DNA of 51,590 nt from an uncultured Lachnospiraceae bacterium. Its GTDB lineage: Bacteria > Bacillota > Clostridia > Lachnospirales > Lachnospiraceae. The number at the start of each line of letters is the position of its first letter. Position 1 is the first letter of the stretch. The position numbers and the translations under genes were made by a program. Positions 9,968 through 51,590 of the stretch are shown piece by piece. The stretch lies in the NCBI GenBank assembly GCA_902780385.1, contig CACZFF010000032.1, positions 1-51,590 on the forward strand, in the 5' to 3' direction. The notes beneath the pieces are model-generated. The model was given only the letters and a program-made list of their open reading frames with translations, was not told where the DNA came from and did no database searches.

Positions 9968-11734
9968 TCAGCGCCGGTTTGCGCGGGAGGCTTCCCTGTT
10001 AATGAGAAAGATCGATTCAATCGTCTTTCTGGGAATGAAAAAGATCTTATCGAAAGGATTCAGTACGATTCCCTGAATCTCATCGGGAATGCTCTCCCTG
10101 AATACGGGCGGATTCTGCCCGTCGGGACTTTCCGCATTCCGGTCCGCCCCTGCAGCTTCCCGTGCCAGCTCCGAGCCTGCCGGCAGAAAACGCATAAAGA
10201 GCGCGTCCATTGCGTAGGAAAGGACCATGCCGGAGCTATTGTCAGGACCCGCTGCAGCACCGGCCGCTGCCCGGGCTTTGGCCAGAGCCGCATTGGCCTT
10301 GTCCAGCTGTGCCCGGCTCGTATAAGCGGGCTGCCAGAGTTTTCCGTCTTTCGTGCGGATCGCCTGCATGCTGTAGACCAGGCCATTCTGAGGTGCCTGG
10401 CCTGAGGCATCTCCTTTTCCTGCAGCCTGAGTATTTTCGCTGCGCTTTACAGAGATCAGGGGCACAAAGACGCGGCCCTTCTGGTTCATGCGCCGGCGGA
10501 GCACTTCCATGGCGGCAATGAGGGACTTTTCGTCCTTCTGCGCAAGCATAACATCAATTGCCTGCTCGATCGGTTCATTGCCCTGTACTGCCGCAGGGTG
10601 ACGCGCAGTGGCACGGGTCATCGCGTTCTCCCACCGCTCCCTGGCTGCGGGATTCTGATCGCGGGCTGCTTTTTTCTGCGCTTCGCGGGCAGCAAAAGCC
10701 TCTGCAGCCTTCCTGAGATCTTCCGGGAGACGCCGCAGGCCCTCGGCTTTGATATCCTCCGGAATGCCGAAAAATGCCTCCGCGGCCGCGCCTGCGATCG
10801 CTGTGATATCAGCACTGTTTCCTCCCAGGGAAACAGCCCTTCTGACCACGTCTTCAAAATCCCTGCCGTTTAAAAAAGCGGTCATGGCAGCGCGCACGCA
10901 CAGGGCGGAAAGACAGGAGGAATCGCCGTCAGCTGAACCTGCCGCTCCTGTATCCGCACTGTCTGTCATTCCTGAAAAACCGGAAATCATCCGCGCCCCG
11001 CCGGCGCGCAGGATCTCCTCCTTCATGGCTTCTTCGTCAGGAATCTTATATCCGAATTCCCGCTCCAGATACCCGGCAATATAGGGTTTCGTGCTGCCAT
11101 GAATGGCCAGAAAAACTGCGCAGGCAGCCGCTTCTGCTGCTTTGACAGCCTCTTTGCTCCGGTTGGTGAGTTCCGCCTGCAGACGAGCCATGTGCCGCAT
11201 CATATAAAGATCATCCTGAAAAGTCCAGGCCACCGGGCTGACACGCGCCGCAGGCCCCGCGTCATCGTCCTTGACCACAGGACTGCCTCCGCGGAAGAGC
11301 CAGACACTCAGATCCATGGTGTATCCGGCAAGCGGATAAGCCTGGCCGAGACGGCGCATTGCCGCCGTCAGCTCTTTCTTAAAATTCTCTTCAAAGGCGT
11401 TCTGCGGAATATTGGGGCCGTTCACATTTTTTCCGCCCACACTGACATTGACAGCACCAGCCTGTCCAGAGGTCTTTTCGCCCTCATCTTGTCCCGCCTT
11501 TCCCGCCATGATCGTAGGCAGCAACCGCTCAAACTGCAGAATACCGGCTTCGACAGCTGCCGTCATCACAGTCTTGTCAGAAAAATCCTCCCCTGCCTGT
11601 CCTTCTCCGTTTCCGGATGAGGGATCTGTTCCGGCAGCATTTGTCCGGAACAGGGGAATATTTGTATCTGTCAGGTCTTCATGCTTATATTCGTAGGGGA
11701 ATCCGATCACATCCCCGATGATTGCACCAAACAT
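9968..11734 (-). CDS. ADP-ribosylglycohydrolase-like protein fused to an SseB-like domain
   Basis: A 588-residue protein. Residues 1-330 follow the ADP-ribosylglycohydrolase fold: GAIIGDVIGFPYEY at the start, FSDKTVMTAAV near 51-61, then SLGGNSADITAIAGAAAEAFFGIP near 302-325. The metal-binding motifs are altered. The usual S/T-D-D reads S-D-K (52-54), and the usual GGD-x-D-T reads GGN-S-A-D (304-309), so four of six dimagnesium ligands are replaced. After a charged linker, residues about 385-580 resemble an SseB N-terminal domain (GRVFVPLISVKR, GIVLNPFDKIFFIPRKTI). The protein is probably a non-catalytic ADP-ribose binder or has changed chemistry. Low-complexity Gly/Ala/Asp insertions occur at 35-50, 78-108 and 255-275. 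The C-terminal assignment is by eye. Confidence 0.7.
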   Translation of the reverse strand: MFGAIIGDVIGFPYEYKHEDLTDTNIPLFRTNAAGTDPSSGNGEGQAGEDFSDKTVMTAAVEAGILQFERLLPTIMAGKAGQDEGEKTSGQAGAVNVSVGGKNVNGPNIPQNAFEENFKKELTAAMRRLGQAYPLAGYTMDLSVWLFRGGSPVVKDDDAGPAARVSPVAWTFQDDLYMMRHMARLQAELTNRSKEAVKAAEAAACAVFLAIHGSTKPYIAGYLEREFGYKIPDEEAMKEEILRAGGARMISGFSGMTDSADTGAAGSADGDSSCLSALCVRAAMTAFLNGRDFEDVVRRAVSLGGNSADITAIAGAAAEAFFGIPEDIKAEGLRRLPEDLRKAAEAFAAREAQKKAARDQNPAARERWENAMTRATARHPAAVQGNEPIEQAIDVMLAQKDEKSLIAAMEVLRRRMNQKGRVFVPLISVKRSENTQAAGKGDASGQAPQNGLVYSMQAIRTKDGKLWQPAYTSRAQLDKANAALAKARAAAGAAAGPDNSSGMVLSYAMDALFMRFLPAGSELAREAAGADRNAESPDGQNPPVFRESIPDEIQGIVLNPFDKIFFIPRKTIESIFLINREASRANRR

Positions 11735-37086: not shown

Positions 37087-38185
37087 CGTTGAAACGGAAC
37101 AGGATGACATCGCCGTCTTTGACGACGTAGTCCTTGCCCTCCATGCCGACCAGGCCTTTTTCGCGGGCGGCGGAAAGGGAGCCCAGTTCAAGGAGTGTTT
37201 TGTAGTTGACGACTTCCGCCTTGATGAATCCGCGTTCGAAGTCGCTGTGGATCTTGCCTGCGGCCTGGGGAGCCTTGGTGCCGATCTTGATGGTCCATGC
37301 GCGGGTCTCATCCTCACCGGCGGTAAGGAAGCTCATGAGGCCAAGGGTCTTGTAGCTGGCCTTGACCAGCTTGTCGAGGCCTGCCTCGGAGACGCCCAGG
37401 TCCTCGAGGAACATGGCTTTTTCGTCGTCGTCAAGCTCCGCGATCTCAGACTCGATGCTGGCGCAGATGACAAAGACACCGCTGTTGGTCTCGGCCGCGT
37501 ACTCACGGACCTTCTGCACACCTTCATTGTCAGCGCCGTCGTTGGCAAGGTCGTCTTCAGAGACGTTTGCCGCATAAATGACGGGCTTATCGGTAAGAAG
37601 GTTGTAGGTCTGCAGCCATTTTTCCTCATCCTCGGTAAGGCCGTCCGCTGCCAAAAGGGAGGCGGGCTTTCCTCCCTCGAGGTGCTCGCGCACTCTCTTG
37701 AGGAACTCCATCTCTTTGCCGGCTTCCTTATCCATCTTGGCCGTGCGGGCGACCTTGGAGATACGGCGCTCCAGCACTTCGAGGTCCGCAAAGACCAGCT
37801 CCAGATTGATGGTCTCAATATCGCGAAGAGGGTCAACACTTCCGTCGACATGGATGACATTCTCATTCTCAAAGCAGCGCACTACATGGACGATGGCGTC
37901 AACCTCACGGATATTTGCCAGGAACTGGTTGCCCAGACCCTCACCCTTGGATGCGCCCTTGACAAGTCCTGCGATATCCACGAACTCGATCACGGCGGGT
38001 GTCACCTTTTTAGAGTGATACATCTCACCCAGAAGACGGATCCTCTCATCCGGTACCGCTACCACGCCGACATTGGGGTCGATGGTGCAGAATGGATAGT
38101 TTGCTGCCTCTGCGCCGGCCTTGGTCAGCGCATTAAAAAGTGTGCTCTTGCCTACATTCGGAAGTCCGACAATGCCTAATTTCAT
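37082..38185 (-). CDS. ychF: Redox-regulated ATPase YchF
   Basis: A 367-residue Obg-family P-loop protein that prefers ATP and associates with ribosomes. It has the G1 motif [18 protein letters not shown] at the N-terminus, G3 [20 protein letters not shown], a NVSEDDL region in place of the usual G4 NKxD, a coiled-coil insertion and a C-terminal TGS-like domain ([25 protein letters not shown] to the end). Length is normal. ATG start with AAAGGAGAA about 8 nt upstream. The integrative element begins right upstream of this gene, so its promoter region is the likely insertion target. Confidence 0.96.
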
Positions 38186-38211
38186 ATATCTCTATTCTCC
38201 TTTATAGATGC

Positions 38212-38257
38212 TTATTTTACAAGGCTTTCCCGCCTTATTTTACAAGGCTTTCCCGCC
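38212..38257. repeat. Perfect tandem 23-bp repeat, candidate attachment site
   Basis: TTATTTTACAAGGCTTTCCCGCC is present twice back to back without mismatch. It lies between the ychF start and the integrase stop codon (38271), where an element end is expected. One copy may be the crossover duplicate (att). A matching copy at the far end lies outside the window. Confidence 0.5.
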
Positions 38258-38270
38258 TTTTGTTATTCTG

Positions 38271-39506
38271 TTATTCGGTGGTTTGACCCACTTTTGACCC
38301 ACCTATGGTCGCGGCCTGGCATTTTTCAAAATTCCTGATCGCGTCATCCATGCTGTCTTCTGTTACATGCACGTAACGGTCCATCGTTGTCTTCAGGCTC
38401 TTGTGACCTAATATTTTCTGAAGGACTTTCGGCGGCATTCCATATTCGATCGCCCTCGTGGCAAATGTGTGACGCAGGGCATGCATACAGAAATGATCAA
38501 TACCGCACTCATCGCAGAGTTTATATAGATGGGTGTCGTAAGACGAGTTCTTATTCGGCATCCCGGTCCTGAAGTTGACGAACACAAGGTCTTTCATGCA
38601 GAGTGTCATCGTCTTTCCGGAGCGTCTGTCAAAGAACTCCAGGACACTATTCAGTTCAGGGGCTTCTTTTCTTGTTTTTGATTTTTCCTTCTGGTCTTTC
38701 AAGATTTCTATAGCCCTGTCTGTCAGTGGTATCGTCCGATAGCTCGATTCTGTCTTCGGCGGCCCTGCCCGCCAGAATTTTTGTTTATGCCTGAACTCCA
38801 ACGTTTTATTGACTGTTAAGGTCTTTTTCGGGAAGGAGATCGCATCCCACGTTAACCCGATCAATTCGCCCGTACGAAGCCCTGTCTCCAGGATCAGGGC
38901 ATATTGATTATAATTATGTGATTTCTTCGCCTGTTCCATGAACCTTTTCTGCTCGTCAACAGTAAGGAAATGGATATCATTGATATTTCTTACAGGTTTA
39001 AGAATGAATGATGACCCAGAAAGCGGGTGCTTTAAAATCAGTTCATTTTCGACAGCTGACCGGAACATCGATCCAATCATGATATATGTTTGCCGAATCG
39101 TTGAGCCAGCATATACGTCCGACATTTCATTGAAGATAAGCTGGCAATCCATTTTCTTGACATCTTTCAGTAATTTGGTGCCGATGGAAGCTTTGACATT
39201 GAACTTATAGCGTTCCTCATAATTGCGTATCGTATTTGGAGCCAGCCCTTTTTTGATGTTCTTGATCCAGAAGTTATACCATTCGTCTACAGTCAGCTCT
39301 GTTTCTGCAAAAGGGGCATCCCTCTCCTTGGCATTATGCCTGTACTCATATTTGGCGTCTTCCAGCCAGTTACGGGCTTCAGGTACGCTATGGAAGTACT
39401 TCTCATGCGTCTTGCCTTCTGAATCCTTAAAGCGGGCCCGGTATCGTCCGTCCTTTTTTTGGTCTATACCTCGGCCCAGGCTTTTTCCTTTCAGATTTTT
39501 CCCCAC
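38271..39506 (-). CDS. int: Tyrosine recombinase, Tn916-type integrase
   Basis: A 411-residue integrase. The N-terminal arm-type DNA-binding domain (RGIDQKKDGRYRARFKDSEG) is followed by the SAM-like core-binding domain (about 70-175) and the catalytic domain. That domain has the first Arg in LETGLRTGELIGL, HALRHTFATR (His and Arg), the LGHKSLKTTMDRY segment and the nucleophile Tyr in it. All catalytic residues are present, so it should be active in excision and integration. The start is GTG with AAAGGAG 9 nt upstream. An excisionase gene lies 166 bp upstream on the same strand, the usual Tn916 order. Confidence 0.94.
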   Translation of the reverse strand: MGKNLKGKSLGRGIDQKKDGRYRARFKDSEGKTHEKYFHSVPEARNWLEDAKYEYRHNAKERDAPFAETELTVDEWYNFWIKNIKKGLAPNTIRNYEERYKFNVKASIGTKLLKDVKKMDCQLIFNEMSDVYAGSTIRQTYIMIGSMFRSAVENELILKHPLSGSSFILKPVRNINDIHFLTVDEQKRFMEQAKKSHNYNQYALILETGLRTGELIGLTWDAISFPKKTLTVNKTLEFRHKQKFWRAGPPKTESSYRTIPLTDRAIEILKDQKEKSKTRKEAPELNSVLEFFDRRSGKTMTLCMKDLVFVNFRTGMPNKNSSYDTHLYKLCDECGIDHFCMHALRHTFATRAIEYGMPPKVLQKILGHKSLKTTMDRYVHVTEDSMDDAIRNFEKCQAATIGGSKVGQTTE

Positions 39507-40962: not shown

Positions 40963-41126
40963 TGTTTCTCCTTTCTTCTCTTCTTTTTCTTTTTTTTGAG
41001 AGAGGCAGGCCATATTTGGCTTTTTTGTTTGTCCTGCCCCATGGGAAAATACGTGGTTCCGTTATGCGCGCTAAAATGTAAGCGCATCTATTGTTTATGT
41101 CTTATTGCTTAAGGAAGTGCATTCGC

Positions 41127-41813
41127 ATGTATTATGAACTGATCCAAGAATACGAAAAGATCCTCTGTGGCGAGAGGAAACAATTCCATTCCGGATATAC
41201 ATTGACCGGCATGAACGACGGGGCTATCCGGCGCGTCCTCTATTACGCCGTCGAAGAGATCCTTGACTGGGAGCCATCTGAGATGGCTCAAAAATTCACG
41301 CCGGAGATAATCTCTGATCTTGGGCTTGTCAATATCGCCAGCAAAGTCCCATTCCCGCCAGGCCTTGAGCGCAGCAGGGATTATTTTTACTATGCGGAAT
41401 ATCTATATCCCGGAACATGTACAGAAGAATGGAAATCTGCAACATTAAAGTATTACATCAGCTATCTCAAAAGTGCCCGTAACAGGGTCCCCCCTGGCTG
41501 TCCTCGTGAATATAAAGAGATTTATCTTTTCAATTTTCTTGAGTATGCTATTTCCGCTTTTTTGCCGGCAGGCATAGAGGATGACCCAGAGGCCCTTTAC
41601 AAGTTTTTCAGCAGTGACGGTATCGATGGGTTTCTTGCGAAGGCGAAGCTCACCGAGATATGTGCTATCCAGTACCTGTATCCAATCGATATGCTCCATG
41701 CATATCTCGGAACAAAAGGGTCAGCCGTAGATCCTGAGCTTTACCCGTATTACAGGTTCCGCGCCTTCATGAACGAGAACCATCTCTGCCCGTCCTTTTT
41801 GCCCCGGGATTGA
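41127..41813 (+). CDS. Hypothetical protein of the integrative element
   Basis: A 228-residue cytosolic, helix-rich protein without a family I can name. Aromatic residues are frequent (RDYFYYAEYLYPG, LKYYISYLKSARN), and the end reads YPYYRFRAFMNENHL. There is no signal peptide or membrane segment. I chose the ATG at 41127 because AAGGAAG lies 9 nt upstream; an in-frame ATG 12 codons earlier has none. It is one of two rightward genes in a mostly leftward region, so it has its own promoter somewhere in 40963-41126. Confidence 0.65.
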   Translation: MYYELIQEYEKILCGERKQFHSGYTLTGMNDGAIRRVLYYAVEEILDWEPSEMAQKFTPEIISDLGLVNIASKVPFPPGLERSRDYFYYAEYLYPGTCTEEWKSATLKYYISYLKSARNRVPPGCPREYKEIYLFNFLEYAISAFLPAGIEDDPEALYKFFSSDGIDGFLAKAKLTEICAIQYLYPIDMLHAYLGTKGSAVDPELYPYYRFRAFMNENHLCPSFLPRD

Positions 41814-43243: not shown

Positions 43244-43774
43244 CTATACCCGGCGCTTGAGCTTAAGCAGGTCATTCCTGTCCCATAATTTCACTCCGTT
43301 TTCCTTCGCCAGTTTTCTTGCTGCCTTTGTAAAATAACTGTTTGTTGCCACCATACAGCTACGCGTATGGTAATGTCCTTTTGCACCAAGGACCTGTTGC
43401 ACAGCGGCCACGCCGACGCTGTTCCTGTAGCGTTTTGCCTGTACGGCAGTTTTGACGCCGCCTCTTTTTATGATGAGGTCCGCCCCGTAATCTCCTGTTC
43501 CGCCTGTGACCGTTACCTTGTACCCTTCACTCTCAAAATATGCGGCAAGGAACTGCTCAAATTCGTCTCCTTTCATTCGATCGATCTTTGAGAGCGGTGA
43601 CCGCAGGTATCTCCTGTGCTTTGCGCTTTTGACCATTGCCTTAAATGTGCTTTTTAGCGCCCACAGGATAAACTTGAGCACGCATACAATAATGGCAAAT
43701 GTTGCCAATGCTCCGCCGATAACAAATAGCGGCGACTCTGTTGTAATGAGCCTGTATAATATTTGTTTGTCCAT
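43244..43774 (-). CDS. Membrane-anchored Mrr-like restriction endonuclease
   Basis: A 176-residue protein: an N-terminal transmembrane segment (about residues 12-34, PLFVIGGALATFAIIVCVLK), a short basic linker and an Mrr_cat PD-(D/E)xK domain. The domain shows MKGDEFEQFLAAYFESEGYK, then GTGDYGADLIIKRG with the active-site Asp and AVQAKRY (Q-x-K form), followed by MVATNSYFTKAARKLA. Mrr-type nucleases cut modified or foreign DNA. I chose the ATG at 43774 with GAGGA about 10 nt upstream; the open frame upstream includes poor sequence without a site. It may act against incoming DNA at the membrane; that is inference. Confidence 0.82.
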   Translation of the reverse strand: MDKQILYRLITTESPLFVIGGALATFAIIVCVLKFILWALKSTFKAMVKSAKHRRYLRSPLSKIDRMKGDEFEQFLAAYFESEGYKVTVTGGTGDYGADLIIKRGGVKTAVQAKRYRNSVGVAAVQQVLGAKGHYHTRSCMVATNSYFTKAARKLAKENGVKLWDRNDLLKLKRRV

Positions 43775-43911
43775 ATATCGCCCGTCCTCGCCGCAAAAAG
43801 CGGGGCTCTTCTTTCTATTTATGTGCGGCATTTTTTGCCGCCTAAACAAGTTATATGAGATACCCCCCTCTGTTTTGCCTGGACGAAAAACGCGATGGCG
43901 GGCATGTTCAG

Positions 43912-43942
43912 GGCACAAAAAAGGACGGCATTGCTGCCGCCC
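43912..43942 (-). terminator. Terminator of the 377-residue gene
   Basis: On the minus strand GGCGGCA-GCAA-TGCCGTCC (7 bp with one wobble) is followed by six T's. It lies about 115 bp after the stop of the gene at 44058. Confidence 0.75.
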
Positions 43943-44057: not shown

Positions 44058-45191
44058 TCAGGCTTCTGTCACTTTCGTGACATAGCCCCTGTCGCGCGTG
44101 AGCACGACGCTTACCGTGGCCACGTCATACCCCTCGTTACCGAGGACAAACGTTGTCTCGCGACCGTCAATGTCCACCTTCAGGGGGACAGGATAGGCTG
44201 CTGCTGCATCCAGTACATCCTCGCCATAGGCGTAGCGGGCTGCGTGGGGGAAGTTGGTGTAGGCGATCCCCTGTGTAGTTGTCACCAGCAGGTTATTGCC
44301 GTCTCCATGCATAGGGGCCAGCTTCTTCACTGCGCCCTTAACGGGAACAGGGCGGAGATCTTTCGCTTCCATAACGTCTCCCTCTTCCTTATCGAAGATA
44401 ATGGAGTACCCGTTTACGGAAGTGTCCCATTTCTGGGCAGGCGGATTCAGAGGCTCTTTGTTGGCGAGCCAGCAGGAATCGCCATCGGCAGTCTCTGCCT
44501 CGATCAGCGGGACCTTGGAGATGAAGTAGACGTTGACCGTCTTCCTCTCCTCCGTCTCCTGCTCTGTCACGAGTGCCGGCATGAGCCCGTGGCAGAATCC
44601 GTCACGGATCTGGTACCGCATAAAGATCCTGGATCCCTGGAGGCCGATAACCTCCTCGGTGACCGCGGTCTTTTTCTCGGGTTCCTTGCCTTCCTCAGCA
44701 GACAAGGTGACTTCATGTTCGTCGTGGAACAGGAACACCTGCGCGTCCCTGGTTCCCCAGACAGGCGTGATCATCATTGCTTCGGTAGCAGGGATCTTAT
44801 AGAAGAATCCGCTGCTGTGAGCGATGAAGAACAGCTCATTTTTGCCGCCGGACAGGGCCTCAACGGCAACATAAATGCCGTGTTTGTCCTCCGCGATGAT
44901 CTTGCGGAGGTTCAGCGTTCCTGTTTCGATCCTCTCGCCGTTGTGGCGAAGAACACCATTCTCCAGAGTGTACTCGCCGGGCTTAGGGCCGGGGTCGGGG
45001 GTGTCGTTGCCGAGGAACTGGAAAAATGTTTCGAGCTTGTCTGCGGGGACATCGACAATGTCCATGGACTCATCCTGTTCGTTGGTAACGAGCTGCAGTG
45101 TCACGGCCTTTTTATCAACAGCCGTAACCATGTAGGTCTGTCCGTTGAACAGGGACTTAAATGTGTCGTTGATTCTTGTGTTTTTCTTCAT
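44058..45191 (-). CDS. Hypothetical beta-rich protein of the integrative element
   Basis: A 377-residue cytosolic protein I cannot place in a family. It reads as beta-strand rich: an N-terminal module (FNGQTYMVTAVDKKAVTLQL, then an acidic VDVPADKLETFF), a linker NDTPDPGPKPGEY and a larger module of repeated short strands (GIYVAVEALSGGKNELFFI, AQVFLFHDEHEVTL, VNVYFISKVPLIEAETADG). It has no signal peptide or catalytic motif. I chose the ATG at 45191, with AAAGGAG 9 nt upstream. Its upstream region shares a TTTTTGTTAT stretch with that of the WGR-PARP gene, which may be a common promoter element. Confidence 0.65.
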   Translation of the reverse strand: MKKNTRINDTFKSLFNGQTYMVTAVDKKAVTLQLVTNEQDESMDIVDVPADKLETFFQFLGNDTPDPGPKPGEYTLENGVLRHNGERIETGTLNLRKIIAEDKHGIYVAVEALSGGKNELFFIAHSSGFFYKIPATEAMMITPVWGTRDAQVFLFHDEHEVTLSAEEGKEPEKKTAVTEEVIGLQGSRIFMRYQIRDGFCHGLMPALVTEQETEERKTVNVYFISKVPLIEAETADGDSCWLANKEPLNPPAQKWDTSVNGYSIIFDKEEGDVMEAKDLRPVPVKGAVKKLAPMHGDGNNLLVTTTQGIAYTNFPHAARYAYGEDVLDAAAAYPVPLKVDIDGRETTFVLGNEGYDVATVSVVLTRDRGYVTKVTEA

Positions 45192-45372
45192 GGTGTTTTT
45201 CTCCTTTCTCCATGAAATCAATTAATGTTACCTATGATATGGAAGAAAAGGCTGCCTATAACAAAAATCATTTTGCGGCTTGAGAAAAAGAAACCGCCTG
45301 CGCTGCACCTGTCCGGTGTGGGGCAAACGGTCTCCTTTTTAGTTAATATTTTTACAGGTGGCAGGCAGATAA

Positions 45373-45894
45373 TCAGTACATTCTCTGCGGCCAATGATTC
45401 TTACGCTTATTGTCGTAATGCCAGACAGTAAGCGGGATTTTGTTCTTCTCACAGTATTTAGCCACTGCAAGCACTCCTGCGGGGATCGCTTCCAACAGCC
45501 CGTCCGCATACAGGTGCAGCTCCGTGTCGGATTCCTTGATGGCCGCGGTCGAGTCCAGTTTCTCGGAGACAGTCATCTCCATCTTCGAGATGTTATTCCA
45601 ATCAATGAAGTTATTGGTGATTACTGCTTCTGCTTTGGGCCATCCGGTTCCAAACAGGCTCATACACACCGGTTTGCGGGATGCAGGAAAGAGGTGGAAC
45701 TCATATTCCTTGCTCCTCTTCACAGGGGAAACATTGATGCTGCCGACGGGAAGAGTCAGCGCGCTTACGAACTGGTCCCCGGTTTCCTTGCAGACCCAGG
45801 TATGGGTCTCCTTGCTCAACAGGATAAAATGATAGCCTGCGAACTCACAGGTCATATTGTTCGATACCTTTCTAAAAAAATCTTTCTCTTTCAT
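45373..45894 (-). CDS. Hypothetical protein downstream of the nuclease-helicase gene
   Basis: A 173-residue protein without a recognised family. It begins MKEKDFFRKVSNNMTCEFAG; the middle has strands ending in VCMSLFGTGWPKAEAVITNN, and an acidic helix-like segment follows (ESDTELHLYADGLLEAIPAG). The C-terminus is basic (YDNKRKNHWPQRMY). ATG at 45894 with AAGGAG 6 nt upstream. It follows the nuclease-helicase gene by 80 bp on the same strand with a hairpin between, so it may be the third gene of that unit, but termination at the hairpin is possible. Confidence 0.65.
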   Translation of the reverse strand: MKEKDFFRKVSNNMTCEFAGYHFILLSKETHTWVCKETGDQFVSALTLPVGSINVSPVKRSKEYEFHLFPASRKPVCMSLFGTGWPKAEAVITNNFIDWNNISKMEMTVSEKLDSTAAIKESDTELHLYADGLLEAIPAGVLAVAKYCEKNKIPLTVWHYDNKRKNHWPQRMY

Positions 45895-45918
45895 AAAATA
45901 CTCCTTTTCTATTGGAAG

Positions 45919-45946
45919 AGCCCCGTTGGCTTGAGCCAACGGAGCT
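45919..45946. repeat. Hairpin between the nuclease-helicase and the 173-residue gene
   Basis: The arms AGCCCCGTTGGCT / AGCCAACGGAGCT pair at 12 of 13 positions with a 2-nt loop. On the minus strand no proper T-run follows, so partial termination or mRNA processing is more likely than full termination. Confidence 0.6.
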
Positions 45947-45974: not shown

Positions 45975-48683
45975 TTAATCCCCGGAGGAATCACCGCCTG
46001 TATCATGCATTGCCGCAAGGGCTTCCTGCAGGAAGAAGTTATCTACCTTGTTGTTCTTCGTTCCGTTAGACTTGAGACCCGTGACATAAAGCTCGTCACG
46101 CGCCCTTGTTGCGGAAACAAAGAGAAGGCGCCGGATTTCTTCAACTTCTGCATGGGTCACGCGCCCGTTCTTCATGTACTTTGTGATGGTGTTGTAGATG
46201 ACAGGCCACTCAAGTCCCTTGGAACTGTGTGCTGTTACCAGTGCCACTCCGGGGTACTTCTGTGTCCGTCTGTATTCCACTCCTTCACCATACATGGAGA
46301 AATTGCGGCAGTATTCGATAATCTCATCGATATCCTTGTTTTCGAGGGAGTCGCGGAAGTTTTCCACAGCCTCGTCATCCATTGCGATCTCGTCAATGTA
46401 CTCCAGGAAAAGTTCTTTCCCCTGGTACTCATTGCCGGAAATTGCGGATGCCCTTTCGATGATATCCGTGATCATCGCTTCTACTTCTTCAGCGGGATGA
46501 TCCATGATGCCTCCGCCAATAATGGCATTGGCGGCAATGGCTGCATCTTTCGTATCTGTTGCATCGGTCACCACTCTTGCAAAACTGAGGATCGCACGGA
46601 TCCGGCTGTTCTGCATGAGAGGTTCCGGAGCGCCGAACATGGAAGGGATACCTGCCTTAGTCAGGGCATCGGCGATTTTGATAAGTTCGTTCTTGGTGTA
46701 GGCAAGAACGGCGATGTCTTCGGGGTGCATTCCCGCCATCAGGTGCTGGCGGATCCCGGAAACGATGTAATCATATTCATCCTTCTGCTTGGAGAAGGAA
46801 TTTACGATAACAGGCATGCCGTCCGGCCTTGCTGCAATGAGGTCTTTGTCGACCTTGTCGCGGTTCGGCTCGATGAGCTTTTCTGCGAACGCGCAGATCT
46901 GCGGGGTGGAACGGAAGTTCCTGTCGAGATAGATATCTTCGACATGTTCCCCGATATAGTCCTCGAAATGTACGATGTACTCCGGGGATGTATCGCGGAA
47001 CCCGTAGATCGCCTGGAGGTCGTCGCCAACGACCATGAGGGACTTATATGTCGGGATTTCCTTGAGTTTCTTTACAAATTGGATCTGCCCCTCGGACGTA
47101 TCCTGGAACTCGTCTACGATGATGTGGGCAAATTTGTAATTATTCTCAAGATAACCCGGATCCATTTCCAGGACTTTGAAGGTCAGGAGTTCCTGGTCAT
47201 CAAACTCGATCAGGCCTTTTTCCTTCATCGTCTCTTCATATTCGTCATACAAGTCGACGAGCTTGGCAAGTGCTGCGTCACTGATCTCGTCGTACGTCGC
47301 TGCGTCTCTTACGTCCCAGGAGCTGACCTGTCCGCCGTTACTACTTTTCACCCTTTTACAAGCTTTGAAAACTGCTTTGGCAATACTGAGTGCTCCTCGT
47401 GTTCCAAATCCTTTCGTGGCGGAGAAGTTCATGAATGCCCTTCCGCCCCATTCCAGGATCGGCTTCCGGTTCAGGAGGTCTGCGATGATCGCAAACTGCT
47501 CTACATCATCGATGACTTTGGGCTTTCTCTTGAATCCGAGGTCTTCCCAGTTGTCAAGGACGATATCGTTCTGGAGGGCATTGAATGTCGTTACGGTGAG
47601 CCCTTCAAGGGTACGCCCGAACGCCTGCTCAACGCGCCGCTTCATTTCACCAGCGCCGCTCTTCGTGAAGGTGATCATCAGGATCTCCCACGGCTTAACG
47701 CCACTCTTGAGGAGCCTGACGACACGCTCCACGACGACCTTTGTCTTGCCGCTTCCCGCTCCTGCGATGATACGGGCAACGCCTTCAGAAAAGGCGATCG
47801 CCTGCTCCTGCGAAGGGGAGAAACTGACCTTGGCTGTTGCGGCACTCTCTTTCTCTTCTTCCTCTTCTACTTTCTTGGGCGGAAGCGTATATTTGCAAAT
47901 ATCGTAGTTCTTACAATATTCGCAAGTGCTCTCCGCCTGCTCTTCTTCCTGGATGCCCCGCTTGTTCATCTCGACCAGGTCTTCCATCTTTTCATCCAGT
48001 TCAGTCTTTTCCCCGAAATAAAGGTCGGTTTTCTGAACAATGTTATCGCCCTCTCCGAAGAAGGACTGGCTGCACTGGTTCCAGGAACCAGTATCTGAAG
48101 TCTTTTTCAGGAAGTAGATGGAGGCGGTCACATTCTTGAAGCCAAGCATACGCCCGTACAGGATCATTGCGTAAAGCAGCATATCCCGCTGGAAGGCGTT
48201 GTTCCTGCCCGTTTGTGTCATAGTAGGTTTGCCGACCTTGAAGATGACAAGTTCGATGGAGTTCCCACACTCGAAGGCCACGTCCGGCTTCACGACATAG
48301 GGAATATCTCCTATCATGACTTTCATTCCCTTCGGGAAGGACGGCTTGCGGTTATCCGCTTTGACATATCGCATCACCCGTCGGTGATCCCAGAGCAGCT
48401 GCTGCTGCATCTGTTGATAATTTTTGAAGCCGCATTCAGGGTAGCGGCCCTTCATGTACTGCATGATCGAGGACGGATCGCGCTCATTAAAGATAAGCGA
48501 AGCTCTGATCGTGCTTTTTACAATCACGGACCGGAAATAGTTTTCCGGCTGTGTAGCTTCCTTAAGATCTACGAGGAAGCTCCTTGCTTTCACACAGGCA
48601 TCTGCCTCTGTGAGCTTGAAGAAGCTTGTTCCTTCAACGATATCGACATCCGATGTGTCGATTTCTTTTATATTATTTCCCAT
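45975..48683 (-). CDS. Cas4/AddB-like Fe-S nuclease fused to a UvrD-like SF1 helicase
   Basis: A 902-residue fusion. Residues about 50-265 resemble a PD-(D/E)xK RecB/Cas4-type domain: YVVKPDVAFECG (Asp134) and ELVIFKVGKP (Lys149), closed by a C-x2-C-x5-C triplet (254, 257, 263) and an earlier Cys30, the layout of an iron-sulfur staple. The usual acidic residue before the FK lysine is Ile, so cleavage is uncertain. From about 285 a full SF1A helicase follows: the Q-motif SFSPSQEQAI, Walker A IIAGAGSGKT, IVDEFQDTSEGQ, MVVGDDLQAIYGFRD, DRNFRSTPQIC, VTAHSSKGLEWPV and FVSATRARDELYV. All helicase motifs are intact. ATG at 48683 with GGGAG 8 nt upstream. It lies 49 bp downstream of the WGR-PARP gene. 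Confidence 0.88.
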   Translation of the reverse strand: MGNNIKEIDTSDVDIVEGTSFFKLTEADACVKARSFLVDLKEATQPENYFRSVIVKSTIRASLIFNERDPSSIMQYMKGRYPECGFKNYQQMQQQLLWDHRRVMRYVKADNRKPSFPKGMKVMIGDIPYVVKPDVAFECGNSIELVIFKVGKPTMTQTGRNNAFQRDMLLYAMILYGRMLGFKNVTASIYFLKKTSDTGSWNQCSQSFFGEGDNIVQKTDLYFGEKTELDEKMEDLVEMNKRGIQEEEQAESTCEYCKNYDICKYTLPPKKVEEEEEKESAATAKVSFSPSQEQAIAFSEGVARIIAGAGSGKTKVVVERVVRLLKSGVKPWEILMITFTKSGAGEMKRRVEQAFGRTLEGLTVTTFNALQNDIVLDNWEDLGFKRKPKVIDDVEQFAIIADLLNRKPILEWGGRAFMNFSATKGFGTRGALSIAKAVFKACKRVKSSNGGQVSSWDVRDAATYDEISDAALAKLVDLYDEYEETMKEKGLIEFDDQELLTFKVLEMDPGYLENNYKFAHIIVDEFQDTSEGQIQFVKKLKEIPTYKSLMVVGDDLQAIYGFRDTSPEYIVHFEDYIGEHVEDIYLDRNFRSTPQICAFAEKLIEPNRDKVDKDLIAARPDGMPVIVNSFSKQKDEYDYIVSGIRQHLMAGMHPEDIAVLAYTKNELIKIADALTKAGIPSMFGAPEPLMQNSRIRAILSFARVVTDATDTKDAAIAANAIIGGGIMDHPAEEVEAMITDIIERASAISGNEYQGKELFLEYIDEIAMDDEAVENFRDSLENKDIDEIIEYCRNFSMYGEGVEYRRTQKYPGVALVTAHSSKGLEWPVIYNTITKYMKNGRVTHAEVEEIRRLLFVSATRARDELYVTGLKSNGTKNNKVDNFFLQEALAAMHDTGGDSSGD

Positions 48684-48704
48684 AATTTTTCTCCCATTAT
48701 AATA

Positions 48705-48722
48705 AGGCCCCATAAGGGGCCT
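48705..48722. repeat. Hairpin between the WGR-PARP and nuclease-helicase genes
   Basis: Perfect 7-bp arms AGGCCCC / GGGGCCT with an ATAA loop lie 10 bp after the PARP stop and just in front of the helicase ribosome binding site. The T-run on the minus strand is broken (TTATTAT), so read-through is likely; it could set the ratio of the two proteins. Confidence 0.65.
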
Positions 48723-48732
48723 GCTGTTTGGA

Positions 48733-50304
48733 TCACGCGGCCCATTTGATGGCTTCCTCGTCACCCTTATTACAGAACACGATCAGCCCTTCAAGGCATA
48801 ACGCGGGTTCCTGGTAAAAGATGATCTCGTCCATCATGAACCGGCCATACTGCGATTTGTAGTCCAGGCAGTTGTATCCGCCTTTTTCTACAATGCTCTT
48901 ACATTTCTCCCCGAACTCCCCGTTCTTCGGAATGAAAGGCTTTCCGTAAGCGGCACGGTATACACCGATAACGCCAACATCCTGCTCTCCATGTGCCCAT
49001 TTAGAACCGTTGAAGTCTGTGTATCCCAGGGATTTATAAAAGTCTCTGGCAGTATAAATACCATGGCCGAAGGCTTTTCCGTGGATAGGCGCATCGGGGT
49101 TAAGGAGAAGTCCGTTCATAATGATGGACTTCCAGTTGGCAGTAGAGCTGCCATGGATGAACTCATCGGTCACCTCGATGCCCTTCGCCTTGATATAGGC
49201 GTCAAACCGTTCCCGGAAATCCGGAGCATCTACCTGGATATACTTGAATGAATACTCGGGCTGGATGCGGAATTTTTTCCGGATCCTTTCGGTCTCTTTT
49301 TCGTCCGCGGCTTTCATGGAAATATTCCCGAAAGGGGACACCACTTTAATTTTTTCCCCGTTCTTTTCTGTCTGTGCAGGGAGTACACCTTCCATGGACC
49401 TGATGAACGTTTCCCATTCATCAATCCTTTTCTCGATAAGTTTTTTCTGCTCCTCGGGGTCGTCCACCTCAGGGACAAGGAAGTCTGACAGTTTTTTCTT
49501 CGACTTTCCATCCTCGAAAGATACGTCCGTCACCTTGATCAGCTTTGCGATAACATCGTTGGCTGTTTCAGCAGTATGGACATCTTTGAACTTGTTCCAC
49601 GCCTTCCATGCGGAATTGACCATCCTTCTGTTGAAGGGCAGCTTGTTGGAAAGCCAGTCGACGTTCATTGTTTCCGAAACCGACTGCCTGGCCCTTTTTA
49701 CGAAGAAATCATTTGCGCGGAGTACAAGGTCGTCCTCGTCAGAGAGCGGCATGTCATTGGGATCCCCAAACATTTTTTGAAGCTCCGCAATCTCCTCGTC
49801 TTCGTCGTACATCTCATCCGTCAGGTCGTCGTATCCTGCAGCCAGAAGAGTGTAGTATTTGAACCAATAAAACCAGGTCTGATAGGGCCTTTTCAAAACG
49901 AATGCGCCGGATACAATGTCGGCACCTGCATTTTTTGCCCCTGTCTGCCCGAATCTTGCGCCCACATCGATCGTACGCGGCCCCATGTTGTTAGGAACAA
50001 TGTCGTAAAAGACATGGGAGCCTGTTTCCAGGTCGACCTTACGGAGCTTCTTTACTCCGTAAAGTGACGGGGAAAACCAGATGTGGCATTTGCCGGGTTT
50101 CAGCCCAATCCGTCCATCTTCCTCTTCTACTTTGATGGTTGCGGTCCGGTGGTCTTCTGTTTCAATACAGATTTCCCCCGGTTCCGTGAATTCATGTCTG
50201 CAGATTTCTTCGGCGATCGGCTTCCAGAAACTGCTTTCGTCGGCGTCTTCCCTTGCCAGTATTTCTGCAAGAAGACAGCCGTTGTATGAAATTTTTACTC
50301 TCAA
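48733..50304 (-). CDS. WGR-domain PARP (poly/mono-ADP-ribosyltransferase)
   Basis: A 523-residue protein. An unrecognised N-terminus (1-80) is followed by a WGR-like domain (about 84-165, with ARFGQTG in place of the WGRxGxxG core and AAGYDDLTD near its end), a helical linker (about 195-345) and a PARP catalytic domain. The H-Y-E triad is complete: His384 in EFIHGSSTANW, Tyr417 in GHGIYTARDFYKSLGYT and Glu493 in DEIIFYQEPAL. PARPs move ADP-ribose from NAD+ onto proteins or nucleic acids; WGR domains sense DNA ends. The glutamate suggests chain elongation is possible. Bacterial WGR-PARPs are uncommon. The start is TTG with AAAGGAGG 7-8 nt upstream. It is the first gene before a nuclease-helicase, suggesting a DNA-damage or invader response. 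Confidence 0.85.
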   Translation of the reverse strand: MRVKISYNGCLLAEILAREDADESSFWKPIAEEICRHEFTEPGEICIETEDHRTATIKVEEEDGRIGLKPGKCHIWFSPSLYGVKKLRKVDLETGSHVFYDIVPNNMGPRTIDVGARFGQTGAKNAGADIVSGAFVLKRPYQTWFYWFKYYTLLAAGYDDLTDEMYDEDEEIAELQKMFGDPNDMPLSDEDDLVLRANDFFVKRARQSVSETMNVDWLSNKLPFNRRMVNSAWKAWNKFKDVHTAETANDVIAKLIKVTDVSFEDGKSKKKLSDFLVPEVDDPEEQKKLIEKRIDEWETFIRSMEGVLPAQTEKNGEKIKVVSPFGNISMKAADEKETERIRKKFRIQPEYSFKYIQVDAPDFRERFDAYIKAKGIEVTDEFIHGSSTANWKSIIMNGLLLNPDAPIHGKAFGHGIYTARDFYKSLGYTDFNGSKWAHGEQDVGVIGVYRAAYGKPFIPKNGEFGEKCKSIVEKGGYNCLDYKSQYGRFMMDEIIFYQEPALCLEGLIVFCNKGDEEAIKWAA

Positions 50305-50405: not shown

Positions 50406-50447
50406 GCGAGCCACATCTTGTAATGCTATCTACAAGATGTGGCTCGC
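50406..50447 (-). terminator. Perfect 17-bp-arm hairpin, terminator after iscB
   Basis: The arms 50406-50422 and 50431-50447 are exact reverse complements (GCGAGCCACATCTTGTA) with an 8-nt loop. On the minus strand TTTTTG follows. It ends iscB transcription before the PARP gene, whose promoter must lie in 50305-50405. Confidence 0.85.
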
Positions 50448-50563: not shown

Positions 50564-51590
50564 TTACAGCACATAGACAAGGCCTCTGTTTTTCCTGGCG
50601 ACCGTGCACTTGTCTGCCCGGAAGTTTTTCTTTCCGCACCCAACAGCCTGGAAATACTCGCCCCTGTTGCTCTGCCCGGACTTGATGTAGCGCTGCCCTC
50701 CATAGAAGAACTCAGCCCCGGGAAGGACGCGTGCCGGGTCGTTCATGAGGCGCTTGCTCTTTACGACATGCAGCACCGATATCTGCTGCCTTGACAGCCC
50801 AAGCTGGCTCAGCGCCGGGCCCTGCTGTTCGTAGCGGGGCTTCCGGTTCTTCGCTATGGTGGTGTACTTTGGCTCGCCTTTTTTGGTGAAGCCTGTCTGT
50901 ACCTGGTAGGCACGTTCCCTCTGGCTCTTGATGAGCGCCCGGTCATGGCGCCTGAACTGCCTTACCTCAAAGATATGCGCATTGTCTGTTACGTCAGATA
51001 TCGGCGCCCCGTAAGCGGCGATGCAGACCGCGTCGTCCGCGTGGGTCTTTCCTGTAGAGAGGAGCTCCCTTACAGCGGCAGTCTCCCTGCCGGTGCAGGT
51101 GTCCACAGAGGGGAACATTTTCTCCAGCCCTTTCAGGATCCCGGGGACGGCCTGGTTCAGGACTGATGTCCCGGCATAGCGCTTTCTTTCTCCGTCAGCC
51201 GGGAGTTTGAGCTCTTTCCTGTGGAGCTTGTCGTGGCAGGACATGCAGAGGCCCGCGATGTTGTACCAGCACTCACTCCCTCTTTTGCCCCTGGGCAGGA
51301 TGTGGTGGTAGTGCTCTATGACCGCCTTCCCGCAGCACAGGCACTTCCCTTCCTGCAGGTGCCAGATGTAGTCCTTCACGTCACGGTAGCCCCTGAGTTT
51401 CCCGTTCTGGAAGTCGGTACCGTAAACGGAACCGTCATCCAGCTGCATGAAGGCGAACTTATTGACCTCCAGTGTCCAGCTGTCTACAGGGAGGTACTTC
51501 CTGATCCGCCGGACCATGTTCACATGGGTGCGGATGAGCTGTTTTACGGAAGGCGTCACCCAGCCCTTCGGGCGGCTGCGGTTGTTGAAC
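50564..51590 (-). CDS. iscB: IscB RNA-guided nuclease, partial at the window edge
   Basis: The frame runs open to the right edge, so the N-terminus (RuvC I) is missing; 341 residues are seen. The first visible residues, FNNRSRPKGWVTPSVKQLI, belong to the Arg-rich bridge helix and its exit. Then come RuvC II (WTLEVNKFAFM), an HNH domain (EHYHHILPRGKRGS) with zinc pairs CLCC and CMSC, RuvC III in GKTHADDAVCIAAYG and a C-terminal RNA/target-recognition region. All visible catalytic residues are intact. IscB is the ancestor-type relative of Cas9 and cuts DNA guided by an omega RNA encoded upstream of the gene, here beyond the window. A GTG at 51559 is not the real start. No TnpA is visible. Confidence 0.92.
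   Translation of the reverse strand, partial: FNNRSRPKGWVTPSVKQLIRTHVNMVRRIRKYLPVDSWTLEVNKFAFMQLDDGSVYGTDFQNGKLRGYRDVKDYIWHLQEGKCLCCGKAVIEHYHHILPRGKRGSECWYNIAGLCMSCHDKLHRKELKLPADGERKRYAGTSVLNQAVPGILKGLEKMFPSVDTCTGRETAAVRELLSTGKTHADDAVCIAAYGAPISDVTDNAHIFEVRQFRRHDRALIKSQRERAYQVQTGFTKKGEPKYTTIAKNRKPRYEQQGPALSQLGLSRQQISVLHVVKSKRLMNDPARVLPGAEFFYGGQRYIKSGQSNRGEYFQAVGCGKKNFRADKCTVARKNRGLVYVL

What the first reader, a model, noticed from the sequence alone, without database searches (positions are those of the whole stretch)
45975..50304. WGR-PARP paired with an Fe-S nuclease-helicase fusion: candidate new conflict system
Seen: adjacent leftward genes 49 bp apart encode a protein with a complete PARP H-Y-E triad and a WGR-like domain, and a protein with a Cas4/AddB-like Cys-cluster domain fused to a full UvrD-like helicase. 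Known: WGR-PARPs sense DNA ends and use NAD+; RecB/AddB-like nuclease-helicases process DNA ends, and Cas4-type fusions occur in defence loci. Inferred: both respond to broken or invading linear DNA, one by processing it and one by ADP-ribosylating a target or depleting NAD+. The 173- and 377-residue proteins next to them could be further components. I know of no described system with this pair.
Basis: partly seen in the sequence, partly recalled or inferred. Interest (0 to 1): 0.85.

Follow-up and report, generated by a model that had tools for sequence, protein, structure and literature searches.

The report
PARP–helicase repair pair on mobile elements
On a piece of mobile DNA inserted in a bacterial chromosome, an enzyme built like the human DNA-break sensor PARP1/2 is probably made together with a DNA-unwinding motor carrying an iron-sulphur domain; relatives on giant plasmids and large phages sit among DNA-copying and DNA-joining genes, so the pair looks more like a DNA-repair kit of mobile elements than a new immune system.

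Summary
A leftward two-gene operon encodes a PARP (48733-50304) and a UvrD-type helicase (ATG at 48683, 49-nt gap). The PARP has the H-Y-E triad and models as WGR, helical and catalytic domains, closest to DNA-bound PARP1/2. The helicase has an N-terminal four-cysteine RecB/Cas4-like domain that has lost the motif III acid in 7 of 7 relatives, so 'nuclease' is not supported. The pair lies in an element that begins with a tyrosine integrase beside chromosomal ychF. The same pair, same order, is on Butyrivibrio megaplasmid pCY360 (28% and 49% identity); I saw adjacency nowhere else. WGR-PARP relatives recur on megaplasmids and viral contigs. On viral contigs a macro-domain-cluster gene lies beside the PARP in 57 of 77 loci, and ligase, polymerase or primase genes are often near. 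One phage contig carries both genes: helicase between DnaB and DnaE, PARP one base after a DNA ligase gene. I favour a DNA-break repair/replication module of large mobile elements over a conflict system. The PARP family is in print; I saw no description of the pair. New variant of a known kind.

The parts
48733..50304 (-). WGR-HD-ART ADP-ribosyltransferase of the PARP type, 523 aa, TTG start; extra N-terminal ~80-residue beta/alpha domain; divergent WGR ~85-165; helical regulatory domain ~189-306; ART domain ~311-515 with H384/Y417/E493
45975..48683 (-). SF1 UvrD/PcrA-like helicase with N-terminal four-Cys RecB/Cas4-like domain (degenerate (D/E)XK), 902 aa, ATG start
   Evidence: Pfam, NCBIfam; Cys and motif comparison in 7 relatives; start and Shine-Dalgarno
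48684..48732 (-). 49-nt intergenic gap with Shine-Dalgarno-like GGGAGA before the helicase ATG: the two genes are probably one transcript
   Evidence: sequence
50406..50447 (-). intrinsic terminator-like hairpin (17-nt perfectly paired arms, then TTTTT) between the upstream iscB-like gene and the PARP: probable 5' edge of the operon
38271..39506 (-). tyrosine integrase, 411 aa, at the chromosome/element junction
   Evidence: Pfam Phage_integrase E 1.5e-29; not found in 9 same-genus ychF loci, 7 of them with over 1 kb upstream
38211..38256 (.). two perfect tandem copies of a 23-nt sequence between ychF and integrase; candidate attachment-site core (inference; no third exact copy in the genome)
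   Evidence: homology to relatives ends between 38240 and 38185
45373..45939 (-). 188-aa ORF, 35 nt after the helicase stop; no family; not shown to belong to the pair
   Evidence: no pCY360 match
44058..45221 (-). 387-aa ORF downstream; no family; not shown to belong to the pair
   Evidence: no pCY360 match
41091..41813 (+). 240-aa orphan family shared with pCY360 and with the G1175 mobile contig; marks the element's kinship
   Evidence: 25% identity, E 3e-13 and 2e-15

Best explanation
The pair is a DNA-break response module carried by a large integrative/conjugative-type element. It belongs to the replication, recombination and repair toolkit that large phages and megaplasmids carry, not to an anti-phage system. 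Proposed steps: (1) the WGR domain binds nicks, gaps or ends that arise on the element's own DNA during transfer, replication-fork collapse or attack; (2) DNA contact opens the helical domain and switches on the ART domain, which ADP-ribosylates nearby proteins; (3) this mark recruits or regulates the co-expressed UvrD/PcrA-type motor, whose N-terminal Fe-S domain serves as a DNA-holding clamp rather than a cutter, to clear proteins or unwind the end for repair; (4) a ligase seals the DNA and a macro/PARG-type hydrolase removes the mark, both supplied by the replicon or the host. Shown here: the gene arrangement, triad, predicted WGR-HD-ART fold, helicase motifs, four cysteines, loss of the nuclease acid, mobile location, conserved pair on pCY360, and replication/ligase/macro neighbourhoods of relatives. 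Inferred: co-transcription, an Fe-S cluster, DNA-dependent activation, the target, the clamp role and the order of steps.
For: Pair conserved in order and orientation on pCY360 at 28% (PARP) and 49% (helicase) identity, and the only adjacent shared pair found between the two elements. The PARP's best fold matches are PARP2 and PARP1 bound to DNA breaks. In 77 viral PARP loci, genes of a macro-domain cluster lie within 300 bp on the same strand in 57 (33 of 49 non-redundant at <90%; 11 of 22 at <70%); ATP-ligase cluster in 23, NAD-ligase cluster in 21, DNA polymerase III cluster in 34, primase cluster in 31 (each cluster named from one scanned member). On phage contig G848 (148,716 bp) the Fe-S helicase lies between DnaB and DNA polymerase III genes, with an ERCC4 gene next, and the PARP start codon follows the stop of a NAD-dependent ligase gene after 1 nt; both genes on one contig. 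In Cellulophaga phage phi17:2 a DNA ligase gene is the second gene after the PARP, and in huge phage LR756511 an ATP-dependent ligase is the next ORF listed. pCY360 carries its own ligA, dnaE, CHC2 zinc finger (primase-type), ssb, macro-domain and TIGR02452 genes. Four cysteines 7 of 7, motif III acid lost 7 of 7.
Against: Adjacency known from two elements only. G1175, a 99%-complete same-family genome with the helicase on a contig with a conjugation gene, shows no PARP by the A4 profile, and 0 of 28 other PARP-bearing viral contigs over 100 kb match the helicase domain, so neither gene needs the other. No DNA-dependent activity, target or phenotype is known for these proteins. The window's WGR is divergent (FGQ in place of W-G-R; Pfam silent). 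The phage G848 PARP frame stops before the catalytic Glu. No ligase or macro hit came from the ORFs of the 13-kb element part that were scanned; four macro genes lie on other contigs of the genome, whether on the element is unknown. A review of viral ART genes places about 44% of phage ARTs in head-packaging contexts (PMC9503650, section 27).
Confidence: 0.5

Rival explanations
1. Conflict system: the helicase arm recognises invading or recombining linear DNA and the PARP arm ADP-ribosylates DNA or proteins, or depletes NAD+, to stop phages or rival plasmids.
For: UvrD-Cas4-like fusions are reported in defence neighbourhoods with Type III RM and Dcm/Vsr genes (PMC5704561, passages). The helicase matches GajB models (PADLOC best E 2e-58), and an Mrr-type endonuclease lies 2 kb from the helicase in the same element. 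pCY360 carries Wadjet and Cas12a genes elsewhere. DarT-type DNA ADP-ribosylation is a known phage defence (PMC9503650, passages).
Against: GajB models score UvrD helicases broadly; no GajA-type neighbour among the window ORFs scanned. PARP has 0 PADLOC families at E<=0.01. No active nuclease motif. Relatives are carried by phages themselves in replication gene sets. None of the 18 features within 10 kb of the pCY360 pair is annotated as defence, but 12 of the 18 are hypothetical.
Confidence: 0.2
2. Host take-over or anti-defence tool: the PARP modifies host proteins (as T4 Alt/Mod do) or interferes with NAD+-based host immunity when the element enters; macro domains clear ADPr signals; the helicase is a separate replication gene.
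For: Reviews predict ART/PARP roles in host modification and macro domains in countering ADPr signals (PMC7824862, passages; PMC9503650, passages and section 27). Macro-domain-cluster genes flank many viral PARPs.
Against: A WGR-HD architecture fits DNA-gated activity better than a free host modifier. Frequent neighbours of the viral PARPs are ligase, polymerase, primase and DnaB clusters; whether terminase or portal genes are neighbours was not tested.
Confidence: 0.2
3. No functional link: two mobile-element genes that happen to be neighbours in one group of related elements.
For: Each gene is found without the other; on the Aneurinibacillus plasmid both occur about 122 kb apart.
Against: The pair stays adjacent in two elements whose PARPs are only 28% identical and that share few other genes; short gap, own Shine-Dalgarno, upstream hairpin.
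Confidence: 0.1

Closest known systems
Bacterial WGR-PARPs (Herpetosiphon aurantiacus, Clostridioides difficile CD160) and eukaryotic PARP1/2/3
   Same: WGR, helical and ART domains in that order by model; H-Y-E triad. A B. proteoclasticus PARP is already listed in the 2014 survey (PMC4245714, passages). C. difficile PARP is reported active and H. aurantiacus PARP DNA-dependent (PMC5966428 and PMC4245714, passages).
   Different: 18-30% identity to the relatives aligned; WGR and regulatory domain below Pfam detection; extra N-terminal domain; paired with a helicase gene.
PARPs/PARTs of jumbo phages (PMC7824862; PMC9503650)
   Same: Same ART family, also on very large mobile replicons; best viral fold match is a bacteriophage ADP-ribosyltransferase, E 2e-23.
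   Different: The passages and section that I read describe phage ARTs near head-packaging genes; the viral WGR-PARPs surveyed here often sit with macro-domain, ligase and polymerase genes, and mostly without this helicase.
UvrD-Cas4-like fusion proteins (PMC5704561)
   Same: A RecB/Cas4-like domain fused to a UvrD-like SF1 helicase.
   Different: That family belongs to pfam12705 and is predicted to act as a nuclease in RM and Dcm/Vsr loci; this one has no PF12705 hit at E<=1, a degenerate active site, and sits beside a PARP. Which end of the fusion bears the nuclease there was not seen in the passages.
[quoted passage not shown]
   Same: Fe-S 'iron-staple' domain with four cysteines joined to an SF1 helicase.
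   Different: Bad moves 5'-3' and cuts ssDNA (abstract); this motor is UvrD/PcrA-like, so presumably 3'-5' (recalled), with lost nuclease residues.
Gabija GajB
   Same: UvrD-like helicase core (PADLOC E 2e-58).
   Different: Matches begin at residue 286 or later in the rows shown, so the four-Cys domain is outside; no GajA-type partner among the ORFs scanned.

Membership tests
WGR-type PARP (PARP1/2/3-like) | H-Y-E catalytic triad in an ART fold | tested here: met
   H384/Y417/E493, invariant in 13 of 13; ART domain aligns at rmsd 2.5-3 A over about 165-200 residues in several rows
WGR-type PARP (PARP1/2/3-like) | WGR domain by sequence profile | tested here: not met
   no PF05406 hit at E<=1 in the window protein, though 11 of 13 rows of the alignment hit at E<=1
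WGR-type PARP (PARP1/2/3-like) | WGR and helical domains by fold | tested here: met
WGR-type PARP (PARP1/2/3-like) | activation by DNA breaks | not testable with these tools
   needs a biochemical assay
UvrD/PcrA-like SF1 helicase | UvrD N- and C-terminal helicase domains with Walker A and DExx box | tested here: met
   PF00580 and PF13361; GAGSGKT at 308, DEFQD at 524. It is below the PcrA, UvrD and Rep equivalog cut-offs
Fe-S RecB/AddB/Cas4 ('iron-staple') nuclease | one Cys before and CxxCx5C after the core | tested here: met
   7 of 7 relatives
Fe-S RecB/AddB/Cas4 ('iron-staple') nuclease | (D/E)XK motif III and Q motif | tested here: not met
   acid absent in 7 of 7, Lys absent in 2 of 7, Gln of the Q motif absent; D-Y-K and Q are present in the AddB-type rows printed for comparison (AddB identity by Pfam for L238). 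The register rests on sequence alignment only
Fe-S RecB/AddB/Cas4 ('iron-staple') nuclease | PD-(D/E)XK fold | tested here: inconclusive
UvrD-Cas4-like fusions of pfam12705 (PMC5704561) | PF12705 match of the nuclease part | tested here: not met
   no PF12705 hit at E<=1, while the AddB-type row L238 hits it at E 6e-37
Gabija | GajA (OLD-type ATPase/nuclease) partner beside GajB | tested here: not met
   no such domain among the neighbouring window ORFs scanned
Anti-phage defence system | phage resistance when expressed | not testable with these tools
   experiment needed

The most novel reading that the evidence does not exclude
Large mobile elements and phages run a complete, reversible, DNA-break-gated ADP-ribosylation pathway for repairing their own DNA: WGR-PARP as writer, macro/PARG-type eraser, ligase and a dedicated Fe-S helicase as effectors. 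In this lineage the PARP directly recruits or modifies the helicase. This would be a prokaryotic counterpart, perhaps a source, of eukaryotic PARP1/2 DNA-break signalling.
Probability: 0.25. Interest if true: 0.85.

Novelty: new variant of a known kind. Interest (0 to 1): 0.55.

Why it matters
PARPs in bacteria are sporadic and of unknown role (PMC4245714, passages). The survey here finds them on large mobile replicons, often next to likely ADP-ribose erasers and near DNA replication and ligation genes, and supplies a conserved helicase neighbour on a cultured organism's plasmid. That makes a concrete test possible of whether PARP-dependent DNA repair exists outside eukaryotes.

Tried and rejected
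Gabija as an identity: rejected, see the membership test. The 188- and 387-residue ORFs as partners: no family and no pCY360 counterpart. The iscB-like gene as part of the operon: set apart by a hairpin with a T run. Integration-site end-mapping: the 23-nt repeat has no third exact copy in the genome, so the element's far end was not found.

Peptide-pattern scans that confirmed nothing: viral contigs; genome contigs. Of the three loci, L019 was a chance match, L020 and L021 were used. Genome surveys at E<=0.001: PARP in 2 of 146 and 2 of 392, both times G000 itself and a divergent PARP in G105; PF00644 in 2 of 391, G000 and a 184-aa ORF with a short PARP match in G230; helicase N-terminus in 1 of 392 and 4 of 397: G000, G1175, and two weak matches in 1,128-1,150-aa frames, of which the G919 one is AddB-type by Pfam. 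The phage collection gave no match to the phage-type helicase N-terminus; the plasmid collection gave two records, the Aneurinibacillus plasmid and pCY360.

Helicase N-domain structure: the model was too poor to use, so only a VIA second look was run. In VIA lists an unlisted family is not excluded. PARP tree: the window groups with pCY360 (100/99) but on an end branch of 3.86, so its deeper place is unsure.

Literature: none of the papers whose passages I read describes this gene pair. Searches. I saw passages of PMC9503650 (plus its section 27), PMC7824862, PMC5966428, PMC4245714, PMC5704561 and PMC7430649; all other papers only as listings. Most subscription papers are not in the library.

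Full report
What is there. Of bases 1-38.2 kb, the ORFs scanned look like ordinary chromosome: acetate kinase, FtsZ, Mur ligase, PBP, MraW, Lgt and YchF genes among them. Just upstream of ychF lies a tyrosine integrase (38271-39506). Nine same-genus ychF loci (of 19 non-own genomes with a match) were compared: none has the integrase, though two of the nine hold under 300 bases upstream; homology to the window ends between 38240 and the ychF start at 38185. Two perfect 23-nt tandem repeats lie in the junction. From there to the contig end the genes look like mobile-element cargo: a TnpB remnant, class B sortase, Mrr-like endonuclease, two family-less ORFs, the helicase, the PARP and a truncated IscB-like gene.

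The operon. The PARP starts with TTG at 50304 behind a strong Shine-Dalgarno. Its stop is followed after 49 nt by the helicase ATG at 48683, also with a Shine-Dalgarno. A 17-nt perfect hairpin with a T run separates the PARP from the IscB-like gene upstream; terminator-like hits are frequent in this region (34 found against 15.3 expected), but this one has by far the longest stem. Co-transcription is inferred.

The helicase. UvrD/PcrA-like core. N-terminal domain: one Cys near residue 30 and CxxCx5C at 254-263, present in 7 of 7 relatives: window, pCY360, an Aneurinibacillus plasmid, three viral contigs and the same-family genome G1175. In the AddB-type rows the motif reads D-Y-K; here the acid position is I, R or K in all seven, the Lys is missing in two, and the Gln of the Q motif is missing. 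I therefore predict a non-cutting, probably Fe-S, DNA-binding domain. Fold evidence is inconclusive.

Where relatives live. The same two genes, in the same order and strand, are BPR_RS17450 and BPR_RS17445 on pCY360 of Butyrivibrio proteoclasticus (27.8% and 48.6% identity). Of the window ORFs of 80 residues or more searched against the eight pieces of pCY360 at E<=1e-3, the others that match are a 240-aa orphan, the sortase, a TnpB fragment and a few antisense or short frames, so the pair is the only adjacent shared pair found. PARP relatives lie on 10 plasmid records of 360 kb to 1.17 Mb, pCY360 included, in Pseudomonas, Brevibacillus, Paenibacillus, Jeotgalibacillus and Aneurinibacillus besides, and in 9 phage records, both at E<=0.01. 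The A4 scan of viral contigs matched 150 stretches, 145 confirmed, best 80 kept. In 77 of the 80 the PARP fell into one ORF cluster (3 dropped: L067, L099, L101). Within 300 bp on the same strand lies a member of the cluster whose scanned representative is a macro domain, in 57 of 77 (33 of 49 non-redundant below 90% identity, 11 of 22 below 70%). Clusters represented by ATP ligase, NAD ligase, DNA polymerase III, primase, ERCC4 nuclease, PD-(D/E)XK nuclease and DnaB occur within the flanks, at most 8 kb a side, in 23, 21, 34, 31, 17, 27 and 16 of 77. Clusters are single-linkage, each named from one member, and I ran no control for how often such genes lie near any gene of large phages.

Joint occurrence. 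Besides the two adjacent cases, the Aneurinibacillus plasmid carries both genes about 122 kb apart, and phage contig G848 carries both about 22 kb apart: helicase between DnaB and polymerase III genes, PARP start 1 nt after the ligA stop; that PARP's frame ends before the catalytic Glu. Two smaller viral records with the helicase (36,007 and 14,689 bp) show no PARP. Against a strict link: G1175 has the helicase on a contig with a type IV coupling-protein gene but no PARP found; its contig breaks 403 bases upstream of the helicase with no long open frame there. And 0 of 28 other PARP-bearing viral contigs over 100 kb match the helicase domain.

How it works. From the anatomy and company I infer a DNA-break response for the element's own DNA: break-gated ADP-ribosylation, a motor with a clamp-like Fe-S domain, and sealing and erasing enzymes from the same replicon or the host. 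Shown and inferred steps are separated in the best explanation. The defence reading stays open (0.2): related fusions occur in defence loci (PMC5704561, passages), and ADP-ribosylation of viral DNA is a known weapon (PMC9503650, passages).

What is known. Bacterial and phage PARPs, including one in B. proteoclasticus and one in Cellulophaga phage phi4:1, are in print (PMC4245714, passages), as are jumbo-phage PARPs (PMC7824862, passages) and WGR-containing bacterial PARPs with activity (PMC5966428, passages). Fe-S domain plus SF1 helicase enzymes are in print (PMC7430649, passages). The pair, and the frequent PARP-macro adjacency in viral contigs, I did not see described in what I read.

Noticed in passing
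viral loci L029-L108 (e.g. L104:7540-7980 with the PARP after it): A macro-domain-cluster gene lies directly beside the viral WGR-PARP in 57 of 77 loci, upstream in 53 and downstream in 4: a candidate writer-eraser pair in large phages.
   Followed up: partly
L240:9560-12647: In phage contig G848 a NAD-dependent DNA ligase gene is followed after 1 nt by a WGR-PARP gene whose frame ends before the expected catalytic Glu.
   Followed up: partly
window 50564-51589 (-): C-terminal part of an IscB-like RNA-guided nuclease (NCBIfam guided_IscB E 3e-28, below the curated cut-off; RRXRR and HNH in Pfam), cut by the contig end.
   Followed up: no
window 43244-43918 (-): Mrr-type endonuclease domain (PF04471 E 6e-33) behind a hydrophobic-looking N-terminal stretch; PADLOC's best match is the Mrr part of ZorD.
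   Followed up: no
window 41091-41813 (+): Orphan 240-aa family shared by the window element, pCY360 (269123-269836) and the G1175 mobile contig (L237:14874-15695, minus strand); marks a group of related elements.
   Followed up: partly
window 38211-38256: Two perfect 23-nt tandem copies between ychF and the integrase; no third exact copy in the genome.
   Followed up: partly
L003:8928-9431 (pCY360 BPR_RS20155): A DUF3990 gene (E 4e-38) lies two genes upstream of the pCY360 PARP; it also gives weak matches to ART-PolyVal (E 6e-4) and PARP (E 0.004), so a second ADP-ribosyltransferase is possible.
   Followed up: partly
window 9968-11734 (-): Chromosomal ADP-ribosylglycohydrolase domain fused to an SseB domain, a possible host eraser.
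   Followed up: no
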